64,000 nucleotides of DNA, taken from positions 730,896-794,895 of the forward strand of contig VXAI01000139.1 in NCBI GenBank assembly GCA_013399305.1, read 5' to 3'. Below the pieces are notes generated by a model that worked only from the letters and a program-made list of their open reading frames with translations, ran no database searches and had not been told where the DNA came from. Below, piece by piece: positions 45,004 through 64,000 of the stretch (the stretch's first letter is position 1; every line of letters begins with the position of its first letter). The translations under genes were made by a program, and so were the position numbers. The DNA is from Rostratula benghalensis. Taxonomy: Eukaryota; Chordata; Aves; Charadriiformes; Rostratulidae.

Positions 45004-45682
45004 GGGGGGGCGCGGGGTGCCATGGTGTCGCTGCCGCTACCGCGGGGGGGGGGGCGACTCCGGGTCGAACGGGGCTGGTATCTGTCGGGGGGGGAACAGC
45101 AAGAGGAGGAGGAGGAGGAGGAGGAGGAGGGGGGGGAGTCCGCCCCGCTGCTGCTGCTGCCGGGCAGTGTGGGGGGGGGGGGGGCTCGGCGGTGTGGAGG
45201 GGAGAGGAAGGGGGGGGGGGGAGGGGAGCTGCGGCCTCAGGGCTACCCGGGCTAAGGGGGGGGCGGGGAGGCAGGCGCCGGCTCGGCTTTGCTTCGTGGG
45301 GGGGCCCCGGGCACCGTGCAGTCTGGTAGGGCGGTCGCCGGGGGGGCGGCTTGGTGGCCCCCCCCGGGCGGGCAGGCTGCGGGGGGGGCTGCTCCCAGCC
45401 GTGCTCGGTGCTGAGAAGTTCGGGGGGGGGGGCCCGGGTGGGGGAAAGAGGGGGGACAGAGAGGAGGGGGGGTCGAGCTCGGAGGTCGGGCGGATCCATG
45501 CAGTTCGGGGGGGGGCAGAGGGGCCTGTGCAGGAGGGCTCCTGGCGGGGGGGGGGGTGGTGAGGGCAGCGGGAAGGGCCGAGCAGGGGTGAGGGGGGGAG
45601 GGGCCTGCGAAGCTGAACGTCTGATCCCGGTGAGGGGGGGGCTCCTGGCGATGCTTCGGCTGCAGAGCTCTTGGGGGGGGGG
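45004..45682. repeat. G7 grid block 1 (period 42, phase 22)
   Basis: G7 or longer runs cover every position 45004 + 42n up to 45676, 17 in all. Some are longer because natural G flanks them. The block starts four bases after the single N. Confidence 0.97.
45022..45168 (+). CDS. SLC38A6: SLC38A6 exon 1
   Basis: ATG at 45022 opens [19 protein letters not shown] follows and matches human NAERGWYVS. A long Glu run from a GAG repeat and then [11 protein letters not shown] match human EELSPLLSNE. G7 runs at 45046, 45088 and 45130 overwrite several codons without moving the frame. The donor GT at 45169 is inferred from phase, because its downstream bases are covered by the run at 45172. This is the cytosolic N-terminus. 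Confidence 0.8.
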
Positions 45683-48600
45683 CTGTCGCGAGCAGGCAGG
45701 GATAACCTGCTTTTAGGCATAAATCTTGCTGCTCTCTTTTTGTGCTCTAGTATCGCCCTATTCAGAGGTTGTAGGTATTTAGACATCCTTATGGGGCAGC
45801 GTCGTGTTTTATGTGCATGAGGGTTTGCACGATCTTAGACTGAGAAAAGAGATTTTTCTCATTTAGATCAAGGAAGGAAAGTGGCTTGTCCCCCCTCTTT
45901 CCTGAAATTTCCTCTTATGAAAGACCAAAACACATCTCATACTAGTACTTTGTTCTGCCTTTTTCACAGAATCCTCCAAATCATGGTTCCTCCTTTGGTT
46001 TCTCAGTATTTAATTTAATGAACGCAATCATGGGAAGTGGGATACTTGGCTTATCCTATATTATGGCCAACACAGGGATCATGGGGTTTAGGTAAGTTTT
46101 TGATTTTTATGTACACTTATTTTTAAATGTGATTTTTTAAATGGAACAAAGCTTGATTACTAAGACTTCTGTGCAAAACCTGAGGAAGAAGCAAATAGCT
46201 TGTGCTTTTCAGTATTGTTAAATAAGGTCTTCCCTCTCTGGTTTAGTCATTAAGATCTTGCCTGGCATGAGTGTTGCCCAGGCATTGCATTAAATTGCCA
46301 CATGGTGGCAATTTCTTGGCCATTACTCCTAATAGGTTAATTGGGTTTCAAAGCTACTGTCGCCTTTAGTTCTACAAATGGGCCTGCTGGAGTAGGATGG
46401 CTGCATATCTGACAAATCTGCATCAGCTTGCACTTTTGTTTGCACTTCTGCTTGCTGTACATACCAACCTATGGATAATAGGGCCAAAGTTACCAGAATT
46501 GTCATGCTTACAGTTTTCTAAGAGTTCAATTTGCTTCATTAGAAGATACATACTTGTCTGTGTATATGTATACGCCCAAACTTCTATGTTTGTGTTCTTT
46601 CTCTAATTCCTCAGGCCTTTACCCTGACAGTATGTGATATGGGGGGGTGAGCTGGGTAAAAACAAATGGAACTTAGCTGGGGGGGGGGGAGGCCAGATGA
46701 ACTATAGTTGGCAGACGTAAGCCAGGGGGGGAAAATGAGGAAATCTTGTCTTGTGGTAGCTTGCTTGGGGGGGAAGTAGCATTCTTAAAGATAGAAAGTG
46801 CATTGTACGGGGGGGATGCTTTAATTGTGAATATCTTTTGGTTTTTAGTATCTTGCTGCTGATTGTTGCCAGCCTTGCTGCTTATTCTGTATGGGGGGGG
46901 CTCAGCATGTGCACCCAGACTGGTAGGTGAAAAGGGGGGGGCTCTGAAATACTTCCTCACCTCTATCACAAAGCCAGGGGGGGATGTAATTATTATAATT
47001 AACAGCTTGTTAACAGATGGGGGGGTCTGACCCACTGATGTTGAAATATTTAATGTTTTTGGGGGGGATTATTTACCATTTAAAAATACCATGTTGAAAC
47101 TTGGGGGGGAAAATCAATGCAAAACTGACTGGTTTCTAGATTTTGGGGGGGCTTTTCTCATCTTCCTGGAAAGATAGATCCTATATGGGGGGGGCACAAT
47201 TATTTTGATGCTGGCTGAATCGTGCTACGGGGGGGTGTACTGTTGCTTCCAGAAAAGGCTTAAGAGCAATGGGGGGGCAGATTTTCATTCTTATACTTGT
47301 AATATATATTTTGGGGGGGGTTTGAAATGGAGGTTTTGTAATCATAATGAATTAGGGGGGGTCTTATGGCACTCTATATGCAGGTTTTCACAGCATGGGG
47401 GGGACTGATTGAGAAGCCATGTTGCAGTCCTTAGAATTGGGGGGGCTTTGAGAATGTTCAAACAGTGGATTCTAATATCTGGGGGGGAATCTGCTACTGT
47501 TTTAGTTCTTGCATCTTTTATTGGGGGGGGAAACAACTGACTAGTTCCTTGAGTTCTCTTATACGGGGGGGACGCTATAGCAGGAGGTCTCCATCTCTTT
47601 CAGTCAGGGGGGGATTCTTGCCCTCTCATTTGTTTTCTTCTCTTTTCAGGGGGGGTGGGGGAAAGCTTCTGTGTCTTTCCTTGTTGGCTTGGGGGGGTAT
47701 AGCTAGCTTTGGTCTCTCGGGTGATTGCTTCCGGGGGGGTTTTCTTAGATCTGCTGCTCCTGTCTTCACCTATTGGGGGGGCTTCATACATTCTTAAAAA
47801 ATACTCTTCAGAGGTAGGGGGGGTTTTATGGTTGATATTCTTGGCTGCTTGATGGTCCGGGGGGGAGTCTTTGATAGTGTTTTTCCTCCTCCTGGAGCTC
47901 GGGGGGGTAGAAAGGAATCAGAACCCGAAATAAGTAACTGGAGGGGGGGATATAAAAAAGGGGAAACTCGAAGTAATTTTTTATGGGGGGGGTTCACCTC
48001 TTATTTGAGGCTGAAAAATTTTGTATGGGGGGGGCACTAAGTGATATTATGCTGTTGTTTAGCAAAATGGGGGGGAAAAAGATCCTTGCAACAGGATGTG
48101 GTGGGAGAGTGGGGGGGAAGGGCTTAAGCTTTTTGAAGTAAGAAAAGTCTCAGGGGGGGGAACGTAGAGACCTGGTATACAAAATGGTTTAACTGGGGGG
48201 GTATTGTCCAAATGCAAAATTCCACCTCAAGAAAGTGGGGGGGAAATACACACAACTGAAAGCAAGGAATATTTGCTGGGGGGGGAGGAGGAAGTATTTC
48301 TCTTGCCTGAAACTTGCACTGGGGGGGACAAGTAATTAGTCAATGCAATGTGGACAGGTAATGGGGGGGCCAGAACTATTACCTAGGGAAGTTTGCTGGC
48401 TTTAGGGGGGGCTGTGTTCTGATTTTTTCAAAAAATAAGATTTGTGGGGGGGGATATTTACTATAATTCCTGTAAATTATTCAAGTAAGGGGGGGTTAGA
48501 TAGCATTCCAAGTTTGGAACATTGTCTTTAGGGGGGGAAAAAAATTACATGCCTTTGTGAACAGTGTTACAGGGGGGGGATTAATCCATGGCAAGGAATT

Positions 48601-62690: not shown

Positions 62691-62765
62691 TACCTTAAGA
62701 AATTACTGAGCTTCCTTTATGTATGGGGGGGGTAATTCTGTTTTTTCCACACAAACCTTAATGTG
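62691..62765 (+). repeat. Local direct repeat, copy 2
   Basis: Second copy, about 2786 bases from the first, which is not a multiple of 42. The grid run falls elsewhere (62726), so each copy shows the bases hidden in the other. Confidence 0.9.
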
Positions 62766-64000
62766 CCGGGGGGGTTACACCTTAAAACAGTAGATGTATT
62801 TATAAAATAGGGGGGGAAGTTAGTATCTCAAAGTGGAATAAATCAAAGCACGGGGGGGGCATTTTGTTGTGTTTGCTTGTGTCAGTTTCACCCGGGGGGG
62901 CTGTAATCTTCTTCTTCCATTACACCATAAGACTAGGGGGGGTGCCAGACATTTAATTTTTACCATATAACGTGCATGGGGGGGTGGTGGGTGTCAGGGA
63001 AGTTACGTAAAATTTCTTAGGGGGGGAGTCATACCGGATGCCCTTTATTTTGTACTTGAGAGGGGGGGTTCAAGTTGCTATACCCTTTTTCGAGACCCTA
63101 CGCGGGGGGGGTTTGGGCTTCAAAAATCAAACAGATTTGTCTTATGGGGGGGTTATGATATAAATAAAATTATTTTTTATTTATTTTGGGGGGGAATAAA
63201 CCAGAGATTATAAACTGGGGGGGAAAACAGGGGGGGCTATGTGAGATTGTTTCCCATATGCTGAGGGAAAGGGGGGGGGATGCATACAAATGTTTAGCAT
63301 GTGCAAGCTTCTTGGGGGGGGATTGGTTCCCTCTTAGGAGTGGAATTCAGTGAAAGGGGGGGCCTCTCTTAAAAACAAAGACTAAGTGAGCAACAAAGGG
63401 GGGGTGATCAAATGATTAGCCAGAGGCTAATAGGAATGCGGGGGGGGACTGACAGATTGCATATTAGGAGGAAATCTGATCGGGGGGGTAATTTGAAGCT
63501 TTGTGCAGCTGAGGCTGTAAGAGGGGGGGGCTTGAAATCTTTCTGAAGGACATATATATATATATGGGGGGGTGTGTGTGAATTCTGACTTGCTTGTGTG
63601 TAAAGAATAACACAAGAAAGTCAACTAATGTATAAATAAAGTTGAATTAGGGGGGGGAGGAATTTACCTCCTCTCCCCCCCCAAATTTTAAGGGGGGGAG
63701 TCTTTGTTTTGGGTGAAATATGCATCTGCCTGTGGGGGGGTGTGAGAAATTGTGTTAATTTCCTTAGAAATTCTGGGGGGGGAGAAATACATATGCTGTA
63801 AGGTTCTCTGTGGTTGAGGGGGGGTTCTGGTTTAGGCAAATAAGACTAAAATCAGAACAGGGGGGGAATATCTCACCAGACACAATCAACAGCTACATGT
63901 CGGGGGGGAAATAAACTTGAATATTGGGAAAAACAGAGCTTTTGGGGGGGAAGAAGTGAATATTTTCGTATTTAGTGACCTACCAGGGGGGGTTAATTTA

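What the first reader, a model, noticed from the sequence alone, without database searches (positions are those of the whole stretch)
45004..63992. Exact 42-base grid of G7 runs across 19 kb
Seen directly: runs of seven G start at 22, 21 or 20 modulo 42 in successive blocks from 45004 to the window end, covering GC-rich promoter, exons, introns, an LTR and a CR1 alike. Roughly 340 grid positions exist and most are filled. No tandem unit accompanies the runs; the 35 bases between them are unrelated. No known mechanism writes G7 at fixed spacing into single-copy DNA. The likeliest explanation is a corrupted or deliberately marked contig.
Basis: seen in the sequence. Interest (0 to 1): 0.97.

Follow-up and report, generated by a model that had tools for sequence, protein, structure and literature searches.

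The report
Bird assembly piece overwritten with G's
In one 43,480-base piece of a bird genome assembly, runs of seven G's stand at 804 of 1,036 places spaced 42 bases apart and break the written form of the SLC38A6 gene; this is likely a computer error in building the assembly and not a feature of the bird's DNA.

Summary
From window 45004 to the end, 343 of 453 slots on a 42-base grid hold G7. The held assembly carries the same letters where compared. The grid fills exactly one assembly piece, C256:775896-819375 (43,480 bases), bounded on each side by a single N. It is absent from the roughly 210 kb fetched around that piece. In the piece, 804 of 1036 slots are filled and 804 of 806 G7+ runs lie on the grid. 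The G's stand in place of other bases: 9 of 11 runs in two repeat alignments have no gap. SLC38A6 exons stay in frame, with untouched codons identical to shag SLC38A6 in 362 of 391 cases and fully overwritten codons in 2 of 33. Four phases imply three one-base slips; the one that can be pinned spans a single unfilled slot beside a T8 run. The likely history is that software overwrote an assembled contig at a fixed stride and clean sequence later repaired part of it. Which program did it, and whether it was deliberate, is not shown. Raw reads were not available.

The parts
45000..45000 (.). single N, left border of the affected assembly piece (C256:775895)
45001..64000 (+). part of the overwritten assembly piece that lies in the window; the piece runs on to C256:819375 and ends at another single N
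45004..45682 (+). grid block, phase 22 mod 42, 17 of 17 slots filled
45683..46640 (.). clean stretch, 0 of 22 slots filled; holds an intact SLC38A6 exon; phase slips by -1 across it
46641..52989 (+). grid block, phase 21, 147 of 152 slots filled
52990..56761 (.). mostly clean stretch with one filled slot at 53444 and 9 of 15 filled at 55334-55922; phase slips by -1 before 53444
56762..63992 (+). grid block, phase 20, 169 of 173 slots filled
45022..45192 (+). match to the SLC38A6 first coding exon, overwritten in frame
   Evidence: tblastn with bird proteins
45967..46090 (+). SLC38A6 coding exon, intact
46844..46921 (+). SLC38A6 coding exon; slot 46851 intact, slot 46893 overwritten (window WGG where 167 of 206 fetched relatives show HLL, FLL or YLL)
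50983..51048 (+). match to an SLC38A6 coding exon; slot 51009 overwritten (window LGGF; 190 of 206 fetched relatives show L or M in place of the second G)
54049..54097 (+). SLC38A6 coding exon, intact, in a clean stretch
57316..57765 (+). repeat copy carrying ten grid runs; aligns (65% identity) to a clean copy at 26577-27046; 8 of 10 runs stand opposite seven bases without a gap
59596..59658 (+). repeat piece (CR1-like, label recalled) that aligns without a gap to the clean copy 36653-36591 across one G7 run
37977..42836 (-). TRMT5, the neighbouring gene left of the N; no grid runs there

Best explanation
One 43,480-base piece of a bird genome assembly has runs of seven G at 804 of 1036 slots of a 42-base grid, in place of other bases in nearly all slots that could be compared, likely because a program overwrote or masked the finished contig at a fixed stride and stored the blanked bases as G. 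The later history is inferred: clean sequence then restored 232 slots, singly or in long stretches, and three of those repairs would have changed the length by one base, which is why the phase steps from 3 to 2 to 1 to 0 along the piece. Why the fill letter is G is untested. One possible route is a two-bit packing rule, (ASCII>>1)&3, under which N and G get the same code; that blanked bases would then reappear as G is an inference. The bird's own DNA most likely carries ordinary sequence at these slots.
For: The held assembly carries the letters (1960 bases at 100%; 10,000 bases over the left border without a mismatch). The grid fills exactly the piece between single Ns at C256:775895 and 819376 and is absent from the other ~210 kb fetched around it. 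804 of 806 G7+ runs in the piece are on-grid, against about 1.5 runs expected from neighbouring clean DNA. In two repeat alignments 9 of 11 runs stand opposite seven bases of the clean copy without a gap. Coding exons keep frame: codons outside runs match shag SLC38A6 in 362 of 391 cases, fully overwritten codons in 2 of 33. None of 206 fetched SLC38A6 relatives has WGG. Only the seven columns depart from background composition. The third slip falls between runs at 32929 and 33012 of the piece, a span that holds one unfilled slot and a T8 run, as a one-base repair would leave. The first run starts 3 bases after the piece begins and the last slot ends 3 bases before it stops. N and G share code 3 under (ASCII>>1)&3.
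Against: Two of 11 runs in the repeat alignments face a gap in the clean copy, one wholly (57728) and one by two bases (57518); the copies are only 65% alike there. I know of no program that writes blocks of 7 at stride 42, and six paper searches listed no description of one. No raw reads or second assembly were available. The order 'grid first, repair later' is inferred from slips and intact slots; two of the three slips cannot be pinned to a slot. The two-bit rule says why G but not why 42. Clean stretches are not richer in exons by eye, so the source of the repairs is unknown.
Confidence: 0.82

Rival explanations
1. Deliberate mark or test edit: someone wrote G7 every 42 bases into this contig as a watermark, trap or control.
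For: Exact stride, one letter, one piece. The left border falls at the round window coordinate 45000.
Against: In the assembly that border is C256:775895, not round. The pattern follows N borders, has 232 unfilled slots and three one-base slips, which a simple mark would not need. The same letters are in the held assembly, not only in the window; an edit made to the held copy itself is not excluded.
Confidence: 0.12
2. Sequencing-chemistry artefact: two-colour instruments call missing signal as G, and reads with seven dark cycles entered the contig.
For: G is the dark letter in such chemistry (recalled). G-rich stretches that fit the pattern sit at or near contig ends in many public contigs.
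Against: Reads start at random places, so dark cycles should not hold one phase over kilobases. Of 122 loci fetched with four G7 at stride 42, 116 have 60% or more G between the runs, unlike the ordinary spacers here.
Confidence: 0.04
3. A real genomic feature, such as a periodic G-rich element or a G-quadruplex array in this bird.
For: The runs are present in the assembled sequence.
Against: They cut through conserved codons (2 of 33 identical inside runs, 362 of 391 outside), add a stop codon in one exon and end at assembly borders.
Confidence: 0.01

Closest known systems
Assembly corruption or masking artefacts in draft genomes
   Same: Confined to one assembly piece between Ns; conserved bases lost; no biological unit.
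   Different: Fixed stride of 42 with blocks of seven G; no described case was listed.
Poly-G read tails from two-colour sequencing (recalled)
   Same: Spurious runs of G.
   Different: Those sit at read or contig ends and vary in length; here the runs are internal, seven long apart from chance neighbouring G, and in phase.
Minisatellite with a 42-base unit
   Same: Period of 42.
   Different: The 35 bases between runs show no shared sequence and Tandem Repeats Finder reports no period of 42. A true 42-base array in a cyanobacterium (L072) looks quite different.

Membership tests
In-silico overwrite of an assembled contig | Confined to one assembly piece and stopping at its borders | tested here: met
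   C256:775896-819375 between single Ns; none in ~210 kb around it
In-silico overwrite of an assembled contig | Replaces bases without changing length | tested here: met
   9 of 11 runs gapless against clean repeat copies, 2 of 11 facing a gap; exons in frame
In-silico overwrite of an assembled contig | Absent from raw reads | not testable with these tools
   No reads held
Tandem repeat / minisatellite | Head-to-tail copies of a similar unit | tested here: not met
   No period of 42; flat flanking columns
Two-colour poly-G artefact | Runs at read or contig ends | tested here: not met
   804 of 806 runs in the piece lie on an internal grid
N mask stored as G by two-bit packing | N and G share a code | tested here: met
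   (ASCII>>1)&3 gives 3 for both; that the assembler of this genome used it is not known
N mask stored as G by two-bit packing | A mask of 7 in 42 existed before packing | not testable with these tools
   Needs intermediate assembly files

The most novel reading that the evidence does not exclude
An undescribed failure of genome-assembly software that blanks fixed-stride blocks of whole contigs and writes them as G, present in more contigs of this and other public genomes and able to fake gene loss.
Probability: 0.3. Interest if true: 0.35.

Novelty: not a real feature. Interest (0 to 1): 0.2.

Why it matters
As written, SLC38A6 of this bird looks broken, with glycine pairs at 14-codon spacing in many exons and a stop in one. 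Gene-loss, selection, G-quadruplex or GC-skew surveys that use this assembly would count false signals here. A scan for G7 at stride 42 would be a cheap quality check.

Tried and rejected
Tandem repeat: rejected. Insertion of G7 between real bases: rejected by repeat alignments (9 of 11 runs gapless) and by reading frame. A faint grid in the clean parts of the window: no period-42 signal. RNA families: Rfam gave 0 matches in the window at gathering scores. All 122 loci were scored for G content between the runs and the 25 lowest were printed. In 116 of 122 it is 60% or more. Of the other six, L072, L036, L065 and L043 look like tandem repeats and L058 is a G/C homopolymer patch; L083 is a four-run match in G-rich DNA that I did not follow. 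Clean stretches as exons: by eye, four of 16 coding blocks lie in clean zones, which hold 224 of 1036 slots, so no enrichment. Species: the best TRMT5 and SLC38A6 hits are birds; the nearest was not resolved. Other affected contigs in the genome: not answered. Outside the 254 kb stretch only 34 kb in four stretches was fetched, of which 9.5 kb reads N; no G7 run is in it.

Full report
What was checked. The window holds 347 runs of seven or more G on the + strand, 345 of them from 45004 on. They lie on a 42-base grid with phases 22, 21 and 20 in turn. Of 453 slots from 45004 to the window end, 343 are filled. Shuffled sequence gives a mean of 26.6 G7 matches on both strands against 551 seen. 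Tandem Repeats Finder finds no unit of 42, and the columns around the runs have ordinary composition.

Where it starts and stops. The window is G000:C256:730896-794895 of a genome of 1,086,608,298 bases in 1298 contigs. That assembly carries the same letters: 1960 bases at 100% and C256:774896-784895 without a mismatch. I fetched 190 kb beside the window plus the 10 kb overlap, which with the window makes 254 kb of C256. The grid occupies exactly C256:775896-819375, 43,480 bases, with a single N on each side. The stretches on both sides, including the next single-N piece, have no grid: 7 scattered G7+ runs in about 210 kb. The first run starts 3 bases into the piece and the last slot ends 3 bases before its end. 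Equal margins would occur by chance about once in 42, so this is suggestive only.

What the pattern is inside the piece. There are 1036 slots on phases 3, 2, 1 and 0 (counted from the piece start), and 804 are filled; 804 of 806 G7+ runs are on-grid. In five dense zones 786 of 812 slots are filled, and in the last of them dropouts look independent (lag-1 correlation -0.03). In the other zones 18 of 224 are filled. Unfilled slots hold ordinary sequence; four that looked partly filled proved to be full runs one base over, before the third slip. The third slip lies between the runs at 32929 and 33012, a span with one unfilled slot and a T8 run. The other two lie in long clean stretches and cannot be pinned.

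Replacement, not insertion. Two repeat copies in the grid part align to clean copies in the window. Together they hold 11 runs: 9 stand opposite seven bases of the clean copy without a gap, one faces a two-base gap and one a full gap. The longer pair is only 65% alike. The gene in the piece is SLC38A6, next to TRMT5 on the other side of the N. Its exons across the piece stay in frame while glycine pairs appear at 14-codon spacing, and one run makes a stop codon. In 16 coding blocks that I bounded by hand, 20 of 29 slots are filled. Compared with one relative, shag SLC38A6 (P0251), untouched codons agree in 362 of 391 cases (one further gap), partly overwritten codons in 13 of 30 and fully overwritten codons in 2 of 33. 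The 206 SLC38A6 relatives are those listed by two capped searches (best 120 of 3995 and best 120 of 1465). At slot 46893, 167 of 206 fit the search pattern and all 167 have HLL, FLL or YLL; 39 did not fit. None of the 206 contains WGG. At slot 51009, 190 of 206 fit a pattern and none of these has the window's second G; 16 did not fit.

How it most likely arose. Shown: an exact stride, one letter, one piece, replacement in place in nearly all slots that could be compared, and intact unfilled slots. Inferred: software blanked the finished contig at a fixed stride and wrote the blanks as G, after which clean sequence repaired some slots. The choice of G could come from packing code (ASCII>>1)&3, under which N and G both become 3. 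I recall that at least one short-read assembler uses such a code; no call confirms it. Nothing here explains 42.

What could not be tested. Raw reads, other assemblies of the species, and a genome-wide scan for more affected pieces. Six paper searches were seen as listings, with passages read in PMC3236183 and PMC4252104, which proved irrelevant.

Verdict. It is very likely not a biological feature.

Noticed in passing
44683-44999: An AT-rich stretch of about 300 bases separates two GC-rich regions next to TRMT5 and SLC38A6 and ends at the single N; it may be a misjoined contig end.
   Followed up: no
40590-41795, - strand: Open frames that look like a CR1-type reverse transcriptase (label recalled, no family search run).
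   Followed up: no
C256:808948-808950 (piece offset about 33052), outside the window: A G7 run turns a codon that is tyrosine in relatives into a stop in an SLC38A6 exon as written.
   Followed up: partly
L145 (C1:300001-310000): N from position 454 to the end of the fetched stretch (9547 bases): a gap or withheld stretch.
   Followed up: no
L072:1352-1484: A 42-base tandem repeat with G7 in an Oscillatoriales contig, found by the same pattern.
   Followed up: no
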